The notes beneath the pieces were generated by a model. The model was not told the origin of the DNA, searched no databases, and saw only the letters and a program-made list of their open reading frames with translations. A stretch of DNA of 38,576 nt from contig JWZX01003036.1 of NCBI GenBank assembly GCA_001275005.1, positions 1-38,576 of the forward strand, given 5' to 3'. The position numbers and the translations under genes were made by a program. Shown here one piece after another: positions 1,109 to 34,276 of the stretch. The stretch is from Chrysochromulina tobinii. Its lineage: Eukaryota > Haptophyta > Prymnesiales > Chrysochromulinaceae. Every line of letters begins with the position of its first letter. Position 1 is the stretch's first letter.

Positions 1109-2279
1109 ATGACGGCCAACGCCGCCGTGCCTCTGCTCGTCCTTTTTTACGACGACAGGTACAATGAAACGCGCGATCGGCACACGATGCCCGTGTACCG
1201 CAGCCTCGACCGCGAGAACATTCCATTCCTCGTTGGCAGTCCGGAGGGTACCATCAGCGTCGGCCGGCCTGGCGACGGGCCGGCCGATCGCAAGCTGTTG
1301 CACTATCGGCCTGGACACAAGATACGATGGCTTCTCCAGGTACTGCCCACGGTGCGTTCTGAGCTTGTGCTTCTGCTCGACACCGATATCCTCTGGCTGT
1401 GCAGTGCGGCCGAGGTGATCGAGAAGCGCGTGAAGATGCTCGCGCAAAGGGAGCTGGCGGCAGCACGCACCGTCATCCTCTTCGGAGAGAAGGGCATGTG
1501 GCCGCCGTACCAGGAGTTTCGCGGCGTGCAGCTCCGCTACAATGAGACGTCGGGCTACCCGCCCGCGACAACGCGTGAGCCCTTCCGTTTCGTGAACGCC
1601 GGCGCGGCGCTCGGGCGGCCTCGCGACGTGCTCGCCATGCTCGAATGCATGCAGGCACGGTACGAGGGCTTCCCGGACGCATGCCCCGCTGGCCATGGCC
1701 CGGACGGCGAGCTGCGATATTATTCGCCCAATCGATCCTACGTGCCACCGCCGTTAATGGTGCCGAGTCGGCTGACCAAGTATCATGGGATGCGGCTGCG
1801 CGGGAGCAACTGGGGGTGGGAGCAGGGATGCTTCCACATGTACTACCTCGAGCACGTCCATGCCGAGCTCACGGCTGCGTGCCCTCCGGTCGTGCTCGAC
1901 CGCGCGGCAAGGTGTGATGGCCTCCCTGATAGCCTCCCTGATGACCTCCCTGATGGCCTCACTGATGGCCTCCTGATGATCGCCTGTGCTCGACCGCGCG
2001 GCAAGATGGCTCGTTCACCTGGCAGGTGTGGACGGTACCTCGCTGGCGCTCTCGCGCGCCGACGCCGAGCACGGGCGCCGTGGTGGGCGCCCGCGCGCGC
2101 TGCTCCTGTCGACGGGCGAGCGCCCGTGCGCGCTGCACGCCAACGGCCCTTCCAAGGCCTCGCTCAAGCCGTTGGCCGAGTGGTGGAATGGCAGTGGCGG
2201 TGTAATCCGAAAGTTCTGGCCATCTGCTGGCCGGGGACCCGTACTTTTGAAGCTCCGAGAAAGAGCGCGACGAGTATAA
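1109..2279 (+). CDS. PLOD/procollagen-type glycosyltransferase, two exons
   Basis: Exons 1109-1911 and 2006-2279 join in frame (AG|A, Arg-Trp) to give 358 residues. The fold reads like the glycosyltransferase domain found in lysyl hydroxylase/galactosylhydroxylysine glucosyltransferases (PLOD family). It has a hydrophobic first strand (PLLVLFYDD), a DxD metal and nucleotide-sugar site in LLLDTDILWL (about residues 91-93), FVNAGAALG (about 160-168), NWGWEQGCF (about 234-242), and after the intron LHANGPSK, the family's terminal His-Gly motif. These enzymes transfer hexose to hydroxylysine-type acceptors in the ER lumen. No hydroxylase domain follows. No signal peptide is visible, so a short 5-prime exon may be missing. 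The intron must be removed to recover LHANGPSK, which confirms the splice. A second sugar transferase starts 161 bp downstream on the same strand; a single two-domain gene cannot be excluded. Confidence 0.72.
1912..2005 (+). mobile_element. Introner-like intron (family A variant) with 20-bp flanking repeat
   Basis: A 94-bp GT-AG intron. Its body is built from about five imperfect copies of GCCTCCCTGAT(g/a), related to the repeat words in the hexosaminidase and phosphatase introns. The last 20 nt of exon 1 (1892-1911, GTGCTCGACCGCGCGGCAAG) recur exactly as the last 20 nt of the intron (1986-2005). The structure is therefore target copy, 74-bp insert, target copy. Here the insert supplies the donor (GTGTGA) and the duplicated target supplies the acceptor AAG. 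Confidence 0.68.
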
Positions 2280-8772: not shown

Positions 8773-9838
8773 ATGGTCGCGATGCTCATCAACTTTGTAG
8801 CGGAGAAGACGGATGCGCACAGCGACGGGATCAGGTCGGTGGCGTTTTCCCCAGACGGGACGAAGATTGTGTCTGGATCGGTCGACAAGACGATCAAAGT
8901 CTGGGATTCCGGTGCGCTTTTGCCCTCAAATCGCCCCTCCTCTTGGCCAAACTGATGCCTGCTGGCTTGTCTGGCAGGCAAACTGGAGCTGATGAGCGAG
9001 AAGACGAACGCGCACAGCGAATGGATCTCGTCGGTGGCGTTTTCCCCAGACGGGACCAAGATCGTGTCGGGATCGGGCGACAAGACCATCAAAGTCTGGG
9101 AGTCTGGTGCGCCGCGAACTCAAATCACGCCCCTCCTTGGCCAAAACTGATCCCTGCTGGCTTGTCTGGCAGGCAAGCTGGAGCTGATGAGCGAGAAGAC
9201 GACCGCCCACAGCGACACCATCGGGTCGGTGGCATTTTCCCCGGACGGGACCAAGATTGTGTCCGGATCGGACGACGGGACGATTAAAGTCTGGGATTCG
9301 GGTGCGCCGCGAGCCCTCAAATCGCCCTCCTTGGCCAAAACTGAACCCTGCTGGCTTGTCTGGCAGACAAACTGGAGCTGTTGAGCGAGAAGACCAATGC
9401 CCACAGCCACTTTGTCATGTCGGTGGCGTTTTCCCCGGACGGGACCAAGATTGTGTCCGGATCGGCTGATGGGACGATCAAAGTCTGGGATTTGGGTGCG
9501 CTGAGCCCTCACAATCGCCCCTCCTTGGCCAAAACTGATGCTTGCTGGCTTGTCTGGCAGGCAAGCTGGAGCTGATGAGCGAGAAGACGAATGCGCACAG
9601 CGACTACATCAACTCGGTCGCGTTTTCCCCGGACGGGACCAAGATCATCACCGGATCGGACGACAAGACGATTAAAGTCTGGGATATCATCAATTGGTCT
9701 CGCAAAGATCACTTGATGTTCAACGTTACCACCCAGCGATTTGTCTTGCAGATGCTGTGGCTGAACAAATACATAATGAAGTTTCCTGATGATGTGATTG
9801 ATCTGCTCATCGAAGCTTGCTTGCCGAAGCAGGTGTGA
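8773..9838 (+). CDS. WD40-repeat protein of five near-identical repeats, five exons
   Basis: Exons 8773-8911, 8978-9106, 9173-9301, 9367-9495 and 9561-9838 join in phase 1 to give 267 residues. Each exon carries one WD40 repeat with the same core: a (n)[14 protein letters not shown](v/i)(s/t)GS..(k/g)TIKVWD block preceded by KLEL(m/l)SEKT. The three middle exons are each exactly 129 nt. The last exon adds a non-repeat tail ([11 protein letters not shown] to IEACLPKQV). WD40 repeats form beta-propeller interaction surfaces; seven blades are usual, so five repeats are either incomplete or need a partner, unless upstream exons exist. Introns sit at the same phase in every repeat, showing growth by exon-intron duplication. 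ATG 8773 is the first Met but follows an AG acceptor-like site, so the true start may be upstream. Confidence 0.78.
8912..9560 (+). repeat. Four 65-66-bp homologous introns in a 195-bp exon-intron tandem array
   Basis: Introns at 8912-8977, 9107-9172, 9302-9366 and 9496-9560 all start GTGCGC and end GGCTTGTCTGGCAG, with a branch-like ACTGAT or ACTGAA about 25-30 nt before the acceptor. Donor-to-donor spacing is 195, 195 and 194 bp. The introns are nearly as similar as the exons, which argues for very recent duplication or gene conversion rather than old repeats. Confidence 0.85.
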
Positions 9839-15255: not shown

Positions 15256-18200
15256 TCAAGAGAGCACAAGGTCGGCCATCTGCAGCCCGACATGCATGTC
15301 CTCCTCCTCCTCGTCGTCGTCCTCGTCCTCGGTGCTCGATGTGTCGCCCTCCTCCTCCTCCGCCAACGCCGGCCGGGCGCCATGATGGGCGCTCGACATG
15401 GCGCTCGGGTCCCCTCGAGTGCGTGCGCCCACGACGGCCACCCGCACTGCGGGGTCTGCTCGAATCAGCGCGCCCAACGGCTGCGCCCCGTCGGGGCTGC
15501 CCGCGCTGTGTTGAGCACCAACAACCGCCGGGCCGCCGTCGCCGCCGCCGCCGCCAAGAACTCCAGCGCCCCCATCGTACAGGAGCGTCGCGTCCTCAGC
15601 ATGTCTCTCAGTACCTGTAGGCCTCGAGCTGCCGGGCTCGGGCCGCGGGCGCGGCGGCGTGAACGGCCGTTTCGGGTCGAGGACCCAATTGTGCTCGGCG
15701 GCGGCGGCACGCCCCCGTGCACGCAGAACCTGTGGGCAAGTGGATGGGGCGTCGTGGTGAGCACTAGTGAGCACTTGCATGCACGAGGGGGAGAGCGGCA
15801 CGCCCGCGTGCATGCAGAACCTTGGGGAAGACGTGGAGCTCGCGGCTCATGACGACCATCGCCGCGTCGTTCTTGTGATGGCCGCCGTAATCGGGCGCCG
15901 AGAAGACGGTTAGAATGCGCCCGCCTGCACACCTGCCATCACCAAGGGAAGCAGGCGAGATCACGGCGAGATCACGAAGGTCGTTTGGCGCACTCAGTCG
16001 CACTCAGTCGCACTCAGTCGCAATCAGTCGCAATCAGTCGCACTCAGTCGCACTCAGTCGCACTCAGTCGCACTCAGTCGCACTCAGTCGCACGCGCACC
16101 ACTCGAAGCCGTCCTGGACGCACTGGTGGGCGCGCAGGATGAGCTTGAGCCCATTAGCCGCGCAAAAGGCGCGTACGCGGTCGGGCGCGAAGGCGACCGT
16201 ATTGGGACCTGTGGGGAGAGGGTGCAGGGCGCGGTGAGGAGCACTTGCATGCAAGCGTAGGGTCTCGAGCGCGTTCGACTCGATCGTATTGGGACCCCGC
16301 GAATTCGGATGGCAGCCGACAAGACCGTCTGAGTCTGTTGGATCGGACCAAAGGATCTGATATGGGAAGCACTCAGTGACCAGTCAGTACTGATGAGGAA
16401 ATCACTCAGTGGCCAGTAAGTACTGGGCGATAACTGCTGGCAAGTTGTGCACCATCAGAGGGGCAATCAGTGACTCACCTCGTTGAGCACGTTCCGTTGC
16501 GACAAGTTCACACTCACGGGGCGCGGCAGCTCGCGGAGCTGATCGAGGTTCTGAAGCGACTCGCCTATGCCCCCATGCACAGCAAGCACCACATCGTCAA
16601 TGAGCGCCGCCACGGGCATCATCTCGAACACCTGGTTGATGGCAGTCCACACGTGCGCGCCGTCGCGGCAGCGGCGCATACACTCCTGGCGGAAACCGTA
16701 GTGAGCGTTCACTTGCGGGTCCTCGTGGTTGCCTCGCAGCAACGTGACCCTCGACGGATGGCAGATCTTGAGTGCAAGTAGCAACGCCACCACCTCCAGC
16801 GAGTGCTTGCCACGGTCGACATAGTCACCGAGGAACAGATACGAGCAGTAGTCCACGTCGCCCGTGTATGCATTCGGCGAGCCAAACGCGGCAAAGAATC
16901 GCTGCAAATCTCCAAACTGGCCGTGCAAGTCTCCAAAGATCTTGAGCGGGGCTTTGAGCGGCACGAGCGATGAAGTCGTCCACATGCGTCGCTCGAGGCA
17001 GAGCTTGCACATGATGAGCAGCTCGGCATCTGTGCACACGTACTCGAGTGAGCCTTCGCCCATTCCGCAGCGCTCGAGCGCCGCCGCGTCCCACCCGCCG
17101 AGCAGCAGTGTGTCACACACGCGCTTGGCCACGTCCTTCCCAGGGGCGGGAGAGGGCGGCGCCAACCACGATCTCGCATGCATCTCGACCTGCCGCTTTT
17201 GGATCGCCGCGTCCGTCGGATCGATGTCGACAGAGGTCTGCCGTTGCAGCCCAGTCGGAGCCGCCGCCCTGCCCAGGAGACCTTTGGGGCTAGCCGACGA
17301 GAGAGACCGGTAGGTCATCGGCGCCTCGAGGACGACCTTCTTAAAGGCAAAGCGCACCTCACCGCCCGGCGACGGCGGCGGCTCGCCACCGCCGCGCCGC
17401 CGCCTCGCGCTCAGCAAAGGGCCCTGCGCACCCTCCACAGCGCCGCCCACGACAGCGCCGCCCACGACAGCGCCGCCCACGACAACGCCGCCCACGACAG
17501 CGCCACCCACGACAGCGCACGTGGATGCATGCATGCTCGGGCCGAGGTTGAGCGCCGTACCGGGCAGCGGCGGGTTCATGCCGCCGGCATGTGGCGGCGA
17601 GTCAGGCGCACTCACCTGATGAGGGAAGCAATCATTTTGATGAGGGAGGCAATCAGGGCGGCAATCAGCATGTGGCGGCGAGTCAGGCGCACTCACCTGA
17701 TGAGGGAAGCAATCATTTTGATGAGGGAGGCAATCAGGGCGGCAATCAGCATGTGGCGGCGAGTCAGGCGCACTCACCTGATGAGGGAAGCAATCAGTCT
17801 GATGAGGGAGGCAATCAGGGCGGCAATCAGCATGTGGCGGCGAGTCAGGCGCACTCACCTGATGAGGGAGGCAAGCAGCCTGATGAGGGAGGCAATCAAG
17901 TCGGCAATCAGCATGTGGCGCACTCACCGATAGAGACGGCCTCGAGGCACGTGAGGAAGCACGCACGGGGGTGCCCTTGCCCAAGGCCGACGTAGCCGTA
18001 TCGGAAGCGTCCTCCGCCGACGCCGCCGTCACTGCCACCGCTGTCGCTGTCGCTGTCGGAGCCTGCTGTGAAGCCTGCTGTGAAGCATGCTCACGTTCCC
18101 GATAGGGCGAGGCGGTGCGTGAGCTGTCCGGGCATGAGGCCTTCGGCTTCATCAGCCGGGTAGGGGGCGAGAGCGGCGAGCGGCTGGCGCTCCCTGGGCC

Positions 18201-18977
18201 ACTCCCAAGTGCATGCAGCGTCGGCGCTGCGAGTGGCTGGGCCACAACAGGAGCGTACCGGTACGGGCCGACGGCGCCAGAGGGAGATTCGAATGGAGAT
18301 TCGAAGGGAGCCGCGGCGGCGACGGCGGCGGCAGCGACGGCGGTGGCGGCGCTCTCCTTCGCGGCAGGCAGGCAGAGCGGGAACTCAGTACGGTACAGTC
18401 GGCTGCAACCCCGCAGCTTTAATTGGCCGACGGCCTCCCGAAAAACAGGGAGCGTCAGCCTCGTTCCCACAGCGCCTGTGAGCTGCTCATGGAGCGCGGC
18501 GGCCTCGGCCATCTCGGCCTCGACCTCGAGTGACGGCTGCCCGTACGCGAGCCGCACGTGCCCGAGCAACACCGCCAGCTCGGTGGCACTCAGCTCTCCG
18601 TCGCCGTCCTGATCGTAGACGCGGAACACGTACTGCGCACGCAGGCCGTTCCAAACGCCGCCGTGCGCGGTCGTGGGATCCATGGCGACGAGCGCGACGA
18701 GGAAATCGTAAAAGGAAAGTCGCGTCCCGCGCAGCATCGCACGGTAGTAGTGCGCCTCCATCGTCGCAGGCACGCCCAAGGTCGCAAGGAAGGTCGTCGT
18801 GGCTGCCGCGCCCGCGGCGCCCTCGACGCTCGGCAGCGATTCGTATACGCTGCGGCAGCGATCCACCCGCTCGTCGTCCCATCCTGCGACGCGCAAGAGC
18901 TCCGGCAGAGCCTCTGAAGGGTCATCTTGCCGGTCCCAAGGCTGGCGTGCCGAATCCCACATCCCGTGGTCCATCAT
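15256..18977 (-). CDS. EF-hand plus PPP-family Ser/Thr phosphatase (PPKL/PP1-like), six exons
   Basis: Exons (minus): 18977-17928, 17615-16479, 16356-16296, 16208-16100, 15932-15821 and 15729-15256; all joins keep frame. Length is 980 residues if the array intron is removed, 1084 if kept. The N-terminus has an EF-hand loop (DQDGDGELSATEL, residues 122-134), then a long disordered region. The catalytic domain has GDLHGQ (near 16930), GDYVDRG (near 16820), GNHE (near 16728), VHGGI (near 16580), ILWSDPTDSD and NSRGPNTVAF across a splice, RAHQCVQDGFEW, and ILTVFSAPDYGG. All metal ligands are present. The WSDP segment and ending RELHVFPKVL resemble plant and protist BSU1/PPKL phosphatases more than PP1, but Kelch repeats are absent and an EF-hand takes their place, suggesting calcium control (inference). 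The C-tail ends in an acidic Glu/Asp run. The Met before it follows a 1-nt overlap with a small upstream frame. Confidence 0.82.
15730..15820 (-). mobile_element. Introner-like intron (family B) with 26-bp duplicated exon edge
   Basis: A 91-bp intron of the phosphatase gene. Its first 26 nt repeat the first 26 nt of the next exon at 24 positions (GTTCTGC(a/g)TGCACG then GGGCGTGCCGC). The body holds GTGCATGCAAGTGCTCAC, with GTGCTCAC duplicated, a possible branch site CTCAC, and the end TTGCCCACAG. The GCATGCAAGTGCTC core is shared with the introns at 16209-16295 and, in variant form, 33115-33212. Confidence 0.75.
15933..16099 (-). repeat. Phosphatase intron filled by a 10-bp tandem repeat
   Basis: This 167-bp GT-AG intron contains ten head-to-tail copies of CACTCAGTCG (plus-strand phase, 15991-16090; two copies read CAATCAGTCG). 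On the coding strand each unit reads CGACTGAGTG. Its removal joins FEW to CAGGRILTVF, as the family requires. The intron is longer than its neighbours because of this expansion. Confidence 0.8.
16209..16295 (-). mobile_element. Introner-like intron (family B) with duplicated exon edge
   Basis: An 87-bp intron of the phosphatase gene. It starts GTCCCAATACGATCG and the next exon starts GTCCCAATACGGTCG: 14 of 15 identical. The core TTGCATGCAAGTGCTC and the end TCTCCCCACAG match the other family B introns. Removing it restores NSRGPNTVAFAPDRV, a conserved phosphatase segment. Confidence 0.78.
16357..16478 (-). mobile_element. Phosphatase intron related to family A, internally duplicated
   Basis: A 122-bp intron (GTGAGTCACTGATTGCC to CCCATATCAG). 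Two adjacent 28-nt blocks each start ACTGG(c/t)CACTGAGTG and end in a CATCAG or TATCAG acceptor-like word, so it holds two potential acceptors. The wording resembles family A, but no flanking direct repeat is visible. Removing it joins VLNE to ILWSDPTDSD, as expected for the family. Confidence 0.6.
17438..17518 (-). repeat. 15-bp minisatellite encoding a Gly-Gly-Ala-Val-Val repeat
   Basis: Five copies of CAGCGCCGCCCACGA (plus-strand phase) and a partial sixth, next to the intron array in the phosphatase gene. In the phosphatase frame they encode AVVGG-type repeats in the disordered linker. It may be coding or part of an extended intron, since the array's last acceptor is uncertain. Confidence 0.75.
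17587..17927 (-). repeat. Tandem array of intron-like units, each CAG|GTGAGT bounded
   Basis: On the minus strand, units at 17927-17859 (69 bp), 17858-17778, 17777-17697 and 17696-17616 (81 bp each), then a truncated 29-bp copy from 17615. Each begins GTGAGTGCGCC and ends TTCCCTCATCAG or TGCCTCCCTCATCAG, so each junction reads CAG|GTGAGT, an ideal acceptor abutting an ideal donor. All units are multiples of three with no stop, so any mix of splicing or retention keeps the frame; retained, they encode a 27-residue His/Cys/Pro repeat (VSAPDSPPHADC start). The ends match the hexosaminidase intron. I read it as an amplified family A introner, with a coding minisatellite as the alternative. Confidence 0.7.
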
Positions 18978-29699: not shown

Positions 29700-31110
29700 C
29701 CGGAGGCCAGTAACCTATGAGGCTGACTGAGGTGGGGAGCCGGAATCGGGGGGTCTAGAAGGGACCCGGATGGCTTCACGTGTCACCCATGGTCCTAGAA
29801 GCCACATAGGAGGCCTCGGAGGAGGTACGGCATGGTCCTGAATGGACAGACACGCGCTACGAGACTGTGGACCGGCGGAAGCCGGGAGAGTGGGGGTCGT
29901 CTCAGGGGGCTGAAACAGATCCCATCCGTCCAGGTGCGGGATGAGAGCGGAGACTAAGCTCGGTCCTGCAGAGGCGGGGATGCGGCTTCGAGGGAGCTCG
30001 GCGTTGGAGAGAGGGAGGACCGCGGGAGGCGGTTTGGACCCGGAGCCGAGCCAGAGAGGCTGACGACTCACAGAGGAGGCCCGTGGGGGCGAGAGAGGAG
30101 AGGAGGAGCCGCGGGAAGAGACCGGGGCGGAGAAGGAGGGAGGGCCGCGGGAAGAGACCTCCAGACTCGAGCGCGAGGATCGAGAGATCGAGAAATAGAG
30201 AGATCGAGATCGAGAGAGATCGAGAGAGATCGAGAGAGATCGAGAGAGATCGAGAGAGAGGAGAGGGAAGGAGGAGGAGGAGAGGTAGAGAAGGAGGAGG
30301 AGGTGAAGAGGTGACGGAAGGAGGAGGATGAGAGGTGACGGAGGGAGGAGGAGGAGAGTCGACGGTTGGAGGAGGATGAGAGGTGACGGAAGGAGGAGGT
30401 GGAGAAGAGGTGACGGAAGGAGAGGAGGAGAGTCGACGGAAGGAGGAGGATGAGAGGTGACGGAAGGAGGAGGTGGAGAGGTGATGGAAGGAGGAGGAGG
30501 AGAGGCGACGGACGGAGGAGGAGGAGAGGTGACGGAAGGAGGAGGAGGAGAGGTGATGGAAGGAGGAGGAGGAGAGGTGACGGAAGGAGGAGGAGGATAG
30601 GTGACGGAAGGAGGAGGTGGAGAGGTGATGGAAGGAGGAGGAGGAGAGGCGACGGACGGAGGAGGAGGAGAGGTGACGGAAGGAGGAGGTGGAGAGGTTG
30701 CCGGAGTTTGGCGATGGGGAGAGCTGGGAAGACCGTGGGAGGCAATTTGGGCCCGGAGCCGAGCCAGAGAGGCTGACGACTCTCGAGAACAGCGGCTGAG
30801 ATGGAGAGTGAGAAGAGCGGTTGAACTCCGAACCGAGCCGGAGGGCTGACGGTTGCGAAGAGGAGGGCCGCGGGAGGAAACCCGGGCGAGGCAAGGTGGA
30901 GGGCCGCAGGAGCGGCGGACTCCGGATCGAGCCTGATGGAGCCGCGGGAAGCGGTTGAGCTCCAGACTGGGCCGGGAAGGCTGAAGGTGCAGGGGCAGCC
31001 CGAAAAGAAGATGAGAAAGAAGATAGAAGCTGCGGGCGGGAGCCCGAGCGGGTCAGGAAGGAGGGCCGCGGGAAGCGGCAGAACTCCGTTCAAGCCTGGA
31101 GGCGAACGTC
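29700..31110. repeat. Purine-rich minisatellite block with degenerate longer repeats
   Basis: The plus strand is almost all purine from about 30080 to 30700. It has a GAGAGATCGA run (about 30185-30260), then many GGAGGAGGAGAGGTGACGGAA-like units of 24-33 bp (about 30290-30700). Around them, a longer degenerate unit resembling GGACCGCGGGAGGCGG then CGGAGCCGAGCCAGAGAGGC occurs at about 30013-30069, 30726-30783, 30818-30850, 30940-30980 and 31065-31100. The best pair is 713 bp apart and about 90 percent identical. Frames up to 480 codons on the minus strand are Ser/Pro/Leu repeats produced by the purine bias and have no family features. I treat it as non-coding satellite-like DNA. Confidence 0.7.
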
Positions 31111-32612: not shown

Positions 32613-34276
32613 TTACGCGTTGAAGAGCTCAATATACCGAGTGCCCATGTGCTTGTTGTTCATAATGGTCGCGCGCTGCGCCTCGGCCGGCGACGTAAAG
32701 GTGACGAAGCAGTCGCCCGACGCGCGCCCGTCGCGCTGGCCGATGACTACGCCGCCAGGGACGACCTGGAAACCAGCAAAGAAGCGCATCACGTCCTCGA
32801 CCGTTGAGCGGAAGGGGATGCCGCGCATTCGGAGGGTCGAGCCTTTCGGGGTCGGGCTGCCTGGCATGTGCGGGCCGCCCATGCCCATGCCCATGTGCTG
32901 CTGCATGCCCCCGTGCGCGCCGCCCATGGCGCCGTAGCCGTAGGCCGCCTGGCCATACGGAGACCCATGCATGCCGTATGCGCCCATGCCGTACGCGGCC
33001 TGCGCGCCCATGCCATTGGGCGCCATGACGGCCATGTTGGCCATGTAGCCGCCCACAAACTGCTCGAGCGCCGCGATGAGCTCGCCGCGCGAGACGCGGA
33101 AGAGCTCGACGTACCTGTGGGGACGCGGCGCCGTGGTGAGCACGTGCATGCAAGGCAGATCATCACGTGGCAATCCACGTGAAGCTCCGAGACGCGGAAG
33201 AGTTCGACGTACCTGCCGCCGATGTGCTGCCGATCCTTGCTCATGGCGCGCTCGCGGTCGTCGGCCGACGAGAACTCGACGTAGGCCTCTCCCGTGGGCT
33301 GCTCGCGCTCGTTGAAGATGAGGTGCACGCCGTTGAGAGGCACTGAGAATCCCGAGAAAAAGTCGAGGATGTCGTTGCGGGTCACCTTGTACGGCAGCCC
33401 GCGCATCTTGACGACCGAATCAGAGCCGGGCATGCCGCCCATGTAGCCCATCTGAGGCATGCCGTAGGGCGCGTAGCCATACGGGCCGCCCATGTGGGCG
33501 GCGGCGGCGTGCTGAGCCATCGCGCTTGGGTGCATCGAGTGCATGCCCGGCGCGAGGTTGTTCGACTTGCCAACGCGCTGCAGCGCCATCATCATCTGCT
33601 CAGGCGTCGCTCGGAAGACTTCGACGTAGCGCGTGCCGATGGTGGCCCGATCCTTGTTGAGCGCGGCGTCGGCGACCTCCTCGGAAGCGAACTCGACGAA
33701 AGCCTCTCCATTGGGCCGTCCATTGGGCCCGAGGATCAGGTGCACGCCGTGAAGACCCTTGGGCGCGTCGTAGCCCTGGAAGAAGGCGAGGATCATCTCA
33801 GCCGTCGTATTGAACGGCAGCCCGCGCAGCCGCACGATGCCATTCGAACCCAGATCCCCCATGCCCATGGCGCCCCACGCGCCGTGGCCGCCCGTTGGCG
33901 TGGCCGGCGCCACGTTGGCCTGGTTCATCTCGCCCTCGCTCGACAGGAAGACCTCGACATATCGCGTGCCCATGTGGCGGTGGTTGAGCGACTGCACGGC
34001 GCGCTCGGCCGCCATATCGGGCAGCTCGACGTACTGCGAGGTGAGAGAAACGAGGGTGAGAGCGGGTGAGAGCGGGTCGTTGGGATGCAAGGCGGGATGG
34101 GTTGGCAGTGGCGGCAGCAGCGGCAGCAGCGGCAGCGGCGGCGGCAGCAGCGGCAGCAGCGGCGCGCAGCGGCGCGCAGCGGCGCGCAGCAGCGCGCAGC
34201 AGCGCGCAGCAGCGAGCAGCAGCGAGCAATAGCTGCTGCTAGCAGGCATGGCAGCAGCTAGCGCCCATGGCTGCTA

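What the first reader, a model, noticed from the sequence alone, without database searches (positions are those of the whole stretch)
17587..17927. Head-to-tail array of intron units with abutting acceptor and donor sites
Four units (69, 81, 81, 81 bp) plus a stub, each starting GTGAGTGCGCC and ending CATCAG, so every junction reads CAG|GTGAGT. Every unit is a multiple of three without stops. The locus could splice as one long intron, by stepwise (recursive) removal, or leave one to four units in the protein as a 27-residue Cys/His/Pro repeat. It could be an intron becoming a protein repeat, or the reverse, in a phosphatase linker.
Basis: partly seen in the sequence, partly recalled or inferred. 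Interest (0 to 1): 0.8.

Follow-up and report, generated by a model that had tools for sequence, protein, structure and literature searches.

The report
Head-to-tail intron array in an alga
In an unnamed marine haptophyte alga, a phosphatase gene carries four head-to-tail copies of what looks like a self-spreading intron unit, each made of a copied piece of the following exon plus a short repeated element, and the same design recurs across the genome.

Summary
In detail: units of 69, 81, 81, 81 bp plus a stub, CAG|GTGAGT at every junction, open in the gene's frame. The array is best read as an intron, not a protein repeat. Each unit is T-E: T copies the first 28 nt of the next exon and brings the donor; E, 53 nt ending CTCATCAG, brings the acceptor. 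The 'stub' is the native exon copy of T, so splicing first donor to last acceptor restores the exon. The E tail (18-mer) occurs 991 times, its backward control never. In 9 of 20 E loci chosen by position only, the exon start is duplicated upstream; control 0 of 380. A second family gives 11 of 20, one spurious. Three sister introns, two in this gene and one in methionine synthase, restore conserved protein. Arrays recur: 32 against 5 control. These look like introners with 17-44-nt duplications; 3-9 bp is reported for introners (PMC9860276, passages). Against: no transcripts seen; one sibling insert (C1604) lies in a 677-residue open frame. Stepwise splicing is untested. Other assemblies have three units, perhaps by collapse.

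The parts
16479..18977 (-). Open frame (833 codons) of a PPP-type phosphatase gene with a weak EF-hand match. If the array is spliced it is two exons, 18977-17928 and 17615-16479
   Evidence: spliced product aligned to P0004, P0005, P0006, P0007 and P0009
17616..17927 (-). The array: 312-bp intron (inferred) of four T-E units, first donor GTGAGT at 17927, last acceptor CATCAG ending at 17616
17859..17927 (-). Unit 1 (69 bp): T with a 12-nt gap (17927-17912) + E1 (17911-17859)
17778..17858 (-). Unit 2 (81 bp): T 17858-17831 + E2 17830-17778
17697..17777 (-). Unit 3 (81 bp): T 17777-17750 + E3 17749-17697
17616..17696 (-). Unit 4 (81 bp), identical to unit 3: T 17696-17669 + E4 17668-17616
17588..17615 (-).
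   Evidence: same place as the second T in the homology-checked introns
16357..16478 (-). Intron of the same gene without detected T duplication (ends CATATCAG)
   Evidence: junction NE|ILWSDPTDSD matches orthologs
16209..16295 (-). T-E|T intron of the same gene: T = GTCCCAATACGRTCG (15 nt), E recognised by eye as the second family
   Evidence: NSRGPNTV across the junction, orthologs NARGPNTV or NVRGPNTV
15933..16093 (-). Intron beginning with about 10 copies of GTGCGACTGA, each a possible donor
   Evidence: the spliced protein has 2 extra residues against the five orthologs
15730..15820 (-). T-E|T intron of the same gene, 91 bp (not 3n); T = 26 nt GTTCTGC.., E of the second family (by eye)
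   Evidence: HVFPKVLRARGRAAA against HVFPKVLRSRGRAAA in P0004

Best explanation
The array is one spliceosomal intron built from four head-to-tail copies of an introner-like insertion. An element E (branch-like CTGAT repeats, ending CTCATCAG) entered the exon just upstream of a GT, and the next 28 nt of exon (T) were duplicated, giving T-E|T (inferred). The first T supplies the donor GTGAGT, E supplies the acceptor, and the second T stays as exon, so splicing restores the old message (supported by homology for three sister introns, inferred here). The T-E unit then multiplied in tandem: units 3 and 4 are identical, and copy number differs between assemblies. Because every junction reads CAG|GTGAGT, removal in one step or unit by unit gives the same mRNA; which happens is unknown.
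For: T opens units 2-4 and the downstream exon letter for letter. E tail GATTGCCTCCCTCATCAG: 991 exact copies, backward control 0. E loci chosen by position only: 9 of 20 have the sequence after the acceptor duplicated upstream (17-36 nt), mismatched control 0 of 380 at score 12. Second family TGCATGCAAGTGCTCAC: 493 against 0; 11 of 20 with duplication, L101 judged spurious, control 3 of 380 at score 12. Two T-E|T introns of the same gene restore the ortholog protein. A methionine-synthase intron with the same E family (C1435, 128 bp, not 3n, T 15 nt) restores a continuous match to solved methionine synthase 4ccz. Arrays of CAG|GTRAGT: 32 against 5 at 50-80 nt (3 of the 32 are the window's own), 8 against 1 at 81-110 nt. 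Low third-codon GC. 12 of 17 arrays have no open frame.
Against: No transcript seen; splicing is inferred throughout. The array is 3n and open. T lies in an unconserved linker, so orthologs cannot confirm this junction. The 9 codons of the exon copy of T score below all 76 exon windows (-0.65, a short stretch), so T does not look like typical exon here. The base before the first donor is part of TCG, not CAG. At 20-49 nt the array pattern equals its control (9 against 9). 11 of 20 and 9-10 of 20 sampled loci show no T duplication by the test used. Queries shifted 60 and 100 nt downstream still gave 3 and 1 of 20. The window-wide direct-repeat scan is weak (7 against 4). In C1604 an insert of seven E copies, 3n, with T starting GC rather than GT, lies in a 677-residue open frame. 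The SET-gene array at C861 is also 3n and open, and Pfam could not tell retained from spliced (26.4 against 26.7 bits).
Confidence: 0.78

Rival explanations
1. Coding minisatellite: the units are always translated as a 27-residue Cys/His/Pro repeat in a disordered linker.
For: Open and 3n in the gene's frame; codon score within the exon range; E-type repeats lie in long open frames elsewhere, clearest at C1604. P0002/P0003 read through it, but they also read into a real intron (..NEVSH), so they are not evidence of retention.
Against: Third-codon GC below all 76 exon windows; E belongs to a family whose other copies end homology-checked introns; 12 of 17 arrays have no open frame.
Confidence: 0.1
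2. Partly retained introns: alternative use of the four donors and acceptors makes isoforms with 0-4 in-frame repeats.
For: Every donor-acceptor choice keeps the frame; C861 has three 66-bp units, also 3n and open.
Against: No transcript evidence; open 3n arrays are a minority that chance can explain (2 of 17).
Confidence: 0.12
3. Origin by local tandem duplication alone (slippage or tandem genomic duplication) without a mobile element: E is an old intron end and T-E was only copied next door.
For: Growth of the array itself fits local duplication (U3 = U4); in L086, L087 and L092 T follows a pre-existing AG.
Against: The same E words occur at hundreds of places, with different T each time and often singly.
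Confidence: 0.2
4. Break repair with captured filler: a staggered break leaves long ends that are filled in (T) and a piece of intron DNA is captured (E).
For: T length is variable (medians 22 and 33 nt in the two samples); E of family 1 is often a patchwork of short repeats (by eye).
Against: Family 2 elements look uniform with fixed ends (by eye), which favours a defined element.
Confidence: 0.3

Closest known systems
Introners (Gozashti et al. 2022, PMC9860276; passages read)
   Same: Similar introns in many genes; one splice site carried by the element and the other taken from the duplicated target; message length usually unchanged. Symbiodinium introners carry the acceptor and take the donor from the duplication, as here; Chrysochromulina sp. 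(a haptophyte) introners carry the donor.
   Different: Duplications there are given as 3-9 bp (4 bp in Chrysochromulina); here 17-44 nt in the position-chosen samples. 'tandem' and 'nested' have 0 hits in that text.
Direct repeats at intron borders (Rogers and Bendich 2025, PMC11782384; abstract read)
   Same: Reports direct repeats at or near borders of all 213 introns examined, 4-30 bp, read as traces of insertion.
   Different: Mean 11.4 bp and not tied to one element family; here the copy starts exactly at the splice site, reaches 44 nt, and the element is shared among loci.
Amoebophrya introner elements (PMC7789003; passages read)
   Same: Repeated introns with direct repeats at exon borders.
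   Different: Direct repeats 3-5 nt, inverted repeats 8-20 nt, mostly non-canonical splice sites; here GT-AG.
Stwintrons (PMC8469720 and PMC7138796; passages read)
   Same: Complex introns removed by consecutive reactions; some spread like introners.
   Different: One intron lies inside a splice site of another, and the Hypoxylon ones have no flanking duplications; here intact units lie side by side.
Recursive splicing with zero-length exons (PMC5126111, PMC2773006; search listing only)
   Same: AG|GT junctions inside one intron.
   Different: Described for large animal introns; here 69-81-nt units, and recursion is untested.
Intron gain by tandem genomic duplication (PMC4974935; search listing only)
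   Same: A duplicated exon piece can supply a splice site.
   Different: No shared element between the copies in that model (recalled).

Membership tests
Introner (intron-creating element) | Sequence-similar introns at many loci | tested here: met
   991, 493 and 57 exact family words against 0 backward controls
Introner (intron-creating element) | Target duplication in the flanking exon | tested here: met
   9 of 20 and 11 of 20 (one judged spurious); controls 0 of 380 and 3 of 380 at score 12
Introner (intron-creating element) | Duplication length 3-9 bp, as reported (not a strict definition) | tested here: not met
   17-44 nt; 15, 26 and 15 nt at the three homology-checked introns
Introner (intron-creating element) | One splice site taken from the duplication, message restored | tested here: met
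   two introns of this gene against five ortholog proteins, one in methionine synthase; for the array itself not testable, linker unconserved
Introner (intron-creating element) | Terminal inverted repeats | tested here: inconclusive
   family 1 ends CTGAT..ATCAG, 5 nt only (by eye); inverted copies between T at L049/L051, near-identical loci, probably one event
Introner (intron-creating element) | Excision shown in transcripts | not testable with these tools
   no transcripts of this gene were found among the proteins
Recursively spliced intron | Intermediates or lariats ending at internal AG|GT | not testable with these tools
   only the sequence sites are shown
Stwintron | An internal intron interrupts a splice-site element of an external intron | tested here: not met
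   all donors and acceptors are intact and side by side
Coding minisatellite | Exon-like codon use | tested here: inconclusive
   third-codon GC outside, codon score within the exon range

The most novel reading that the evidence does not exclude
This haptophyte carries a distinct class of intron-creating insertion that duplicates 17-44 nt of exon and borrows a splice site from it, by a mechanism unlike usual cut-and-paste transposition (target-primed copying or filled-in staggered breaks). Repeated amplification of the T-E unit makes multi-unit introns with AG|GT at every junction, natural test objects for recursive splicing of very short introns; where units are 3n and open (window, C861, C1604) the same insert could also enter the protein.
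Probability: 0.45. Interest if true: 0.85.

Novelty: new variant of a known kind. Interest (0 to 1): 0.68.

Why it matters
How new introns arise is a long-standing question. Here many insertions look young enough that the duplicated exon piece is still readable, so the inserted element, the duplicated target, the borrowed splice site and the restored message can be read off one genome. The long, variable duplication constrains the mechanism and sits badly with a usual short transposase footprint. The arrays offer introns of several nearly identical short units in which one-step and unit-by-unit splicing could be told apart.

Tried and rejected
Coding repeat: not favoured but not excluded. Structured RNA: no Rfam match in the window at gathering thresholds; the array RNA folds less stably than its 100 shuffles (z +2.76). 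Viral carriage: one exact word of each family and 22 nt of T, 0 matches in viral contigs; I also read passages of PMC12768974 on introners in mirusviruses. Window-wide direct-repeat scan: one search gave mostly low-complexity pairs; the filtered version found 7 with GT..AG edges against 4 control, weak by itself though it includes two homology-checked introns. Own-genome protein search (29 matches): besides the gene itself, catalytic domains of other phosphatases and stretches resembling the array residues; I looked at 10 of the latter places and did not examine the introns of the phosphatase paralogs. 20-49-nt spacing: no excess. SET-gene array at C861: Pfam and solved-structure searches did not discriminate. 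Taxonomy through the neighbouring carboxypeptidase found no close named relative among the 120 listed; an HSP90 exon did.

Full report
What is there. The array lies on the minus strand of a gene whose first 833 codons (18977-16479) hold a weak EF-hand match (residues 114-138; 20.8 bits against a cut-off of 25) and a metallophosphatase domain (678-824, 80.4 bits). Best solved relatives are PPP phosphatases, BSU1 first. The assembly has 53.15 Mb in 2253 contigs. An HSP90 exon (L094) has Calcidiscus leptoporus (96%), Emiliania huxleyi (95%) and Tisochrysis lutea (94%) as best named matches over 85% of its length, so I take this to be a haptophyte.

Same-species copies. P0002 (jgi) and P0003 (ena), from other assemblies, equal the window protein outside the array, apart from the start codon chosen and three residues read into the next intron, but have three units instead of four. 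P0002 keeps the TDC unit and one NDC unit; P0003 has two NDC units. This may be real copy-number change or collapse of identical repeats.

Anatomy. Units 2-4 begin with the 28 nt (T) that begin the downstream exon; unit 1 has T with 12 nt missing. The rest (E, 53 nt) is CTGATTGCC-type repeats ending CTCATCAG. The layout is T-E-T-E-T-E-T-E|T. The donor lies in T, the acceptor in E, and the last T is exon.

E is a genome-wide family. GATTGCCTCCCTCATCAG occurs 991 times (489+502), backward control 0. A second tail, TGCATGCAAGTGCTCAC, occurs 493 times (234+259), control 0. A head that carries its own donor, GTGAGTSTCGTYAATTGCC, occurs 57 times (41+16), control 0.

Long duplications. I took 20 places from those listed, by position only. 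In 9 of 20 the sequence right after CATCAG is repeated 74-152 nt upstream over 17-36 nt (score 14 or more); pairing each locus with the others' downstream sequence gives 0 of 380 at 12 or more and 1 of 380 at 10. Six of the nine copies start with GT, giving a donor; three follow an existing AG. Queries shifted 30, 60 and 100 nt downstream gave 0, 3 and 1 of 20 at score 14, so some repetition exists beyond the boundary (with GT required, 6 of 20). For the second family, 20 of the places listed gave 11 of 20 at score 14 or more; I judge L101 (T 47 nt) a low-complexity false hit, leaving 10, all starting with GT (17-44 nt). Control: 7, 3 and 1 of 380 at 10, 12 and 14. L113, with no acceptor found, counts as a miss. 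I also gave 16 E loci (of its 29 matches; window copies and some overlapping ones left out), on 14 contigs, to the GT-required test without a control: 11 contigs hold at least one such intron; C1041 was dismissed because T is E itself, C1619 and C1202 gave none.

A mirror type exists, seen by eye (C182, C265, C380, C1338, C1677): exon end T|GTGAGT..E..T, where the T copy supplies the acceptor AG.

Checked by homology. With the array and four further introns removed, the product (968 aa; no stop met by 15300, where I cut) aligns to P0004, P0005, P0006, P0007 and P0009. The T-E|T introns 16295-16209 and 15820-15730 fall in conserved stretches and restore NSRGPNTV and HVFPKVLRARGRAAA, where orthologs read NARGPNTV or NVRGPNTV and HVFPKVLRSRGRAAA or variants. 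The second is 91 bp, so retention would shift the frame. The intron 16093-15933 leaves two extra residues against orthologs. At C1435 an intron of 128 bp (not 3n) with T = GTGATGATCTCGGGC and five family-1 repeats interrupts methionine synthase; spliced, the 224 residues match solved methionine synthase 4ccz without a gap at the junction.

Arrays recur. CAGGTRAGTN{50,80}CAGGTRAGT: 32 places (17+15, 3 of them the window's), backward control 5. At 81-110 nt 8 against 1 (some span two shorter units); at 20-49 nt 9 against 9, no excess. I held 20 of the loci, 16 distinct arrays, and with the window 17: 5 have all units 3n, 5 have some frame open through the array, 2 have both (L022 and the window), 12 have no open frame (only units between consecutive sites were scored). 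C861, outside that pattern, has three 66-bp units, 3n and open, inside a SET-like gene; Pfam's SET match ends at the array, so retained and spliced forms score alike (26.4 and 26.7 bits).

Results that favour translation. One search found stretches resembling the array residues elsewhere, some in long open frames. I looked at ten such places. At C1604 seven E copies sit between two copies of GCACGCGGCTCACTCCTCGCCCA, 174 nt apart (3n), inside a 677-residue open frame; T there starts GC, not GT. That insert may be retained, or be a GC-AG intron.

Coding test. Codon use was learned from 3520 codons (two HSP90 frames, the carboxypeptidase, 12 phosphatase pieces). Third-codon GC of the units is 0.39-0.48; 76 overlapping 27-codon exon windows of this gene have mean 0.78, minimum 0.52. 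The codon score of the units (-0.38 to -0.45) lies at the 7th-13th percentile of those windows; one stop-holding frame scores higher. The 9 codons of the stub score below all 76 windows, which speaks mildly against T as ordinary exon.

How it works. Shown: the T-E architecture, the families, the duplication, the arrays, and exon restoration at three sister introns. Inferred: that the array is excised, that E was inserted, and that units multiplied by local duplication. Unknown: one-step or stepwise removal, and the insertion mechanism. At L049 and L051 (near-identical, probably one event) E lies inverted between T copies; the spliced frame is open in L051 and, in L049, from about 45 nt before the junction. 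This fits DNA insertion better than reverse splicing.

What is in print. Searches, and the 40 of 67 'introner' papers listed, showed no title on head-to-tail introner arrays or on long-duplication introners in haptophytes; the library is partial. Gozashti et al. 2022 (passages) give 3-9 bp duplications and splice-site co-option. Rogers and Bendich 2025 (abstract) report repeats of 4-30 bp near intron borders. Stwintron papers (passages) describe nested introns.

Noticed in passing
window 1892-2005 (+): Another T-E-T in a different gene: the 20-nt GTGCTCGACCGCGCGGCAAG flanks a TGATGGCCTCCC repeat; donor-carrying type.
   Followed up: partly
window 15989-16093: Intron that starts with about ten copies of GTGCGACTGA, so the donor itself is repeated.
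   Followed up: partly
window 33117-33215 (-): Direct repeat of 28 nt (CAGGTACGTCGAACTCTTCCGCGTCTCG) 98 nt apart, possible further T-E|T intron.
   Followed up: no
L049 and L051 around 1476-1551: E lies in inverted orientation between T copies.
   Followed up: partly
L042 (C1604) 1399-1596: Seven E copies between T copies that start GC, in a 677-residue open frame: retained repeat or GC-AG intron.
   Followed up: partly
L117 (C861) 310-508: Three-unit array of 66 bp, 3n and open, in a SET-like gene; closest sibling of the window array.
   Followed up: partly
L015 (C960): Array with 87, 54 and 66-nt units; the exon after it reads like a prolyl 4-hydroxylase (recalled, not searched).
   Followed up: no
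window 8803-9685: 194-bp tandem repeat, 4.5 copies, that looks like WD40 repeats (recalled).
   Followed up: no
window 30256-30698: 24-bp purine-rich tandem repeat, 18.3 copies.
   Followed up: no
C1354:4234-4312 and C1759:12433-12511: Identical array units on two contigs, perhaps haplotypes or duplicates.
   Followed up: no
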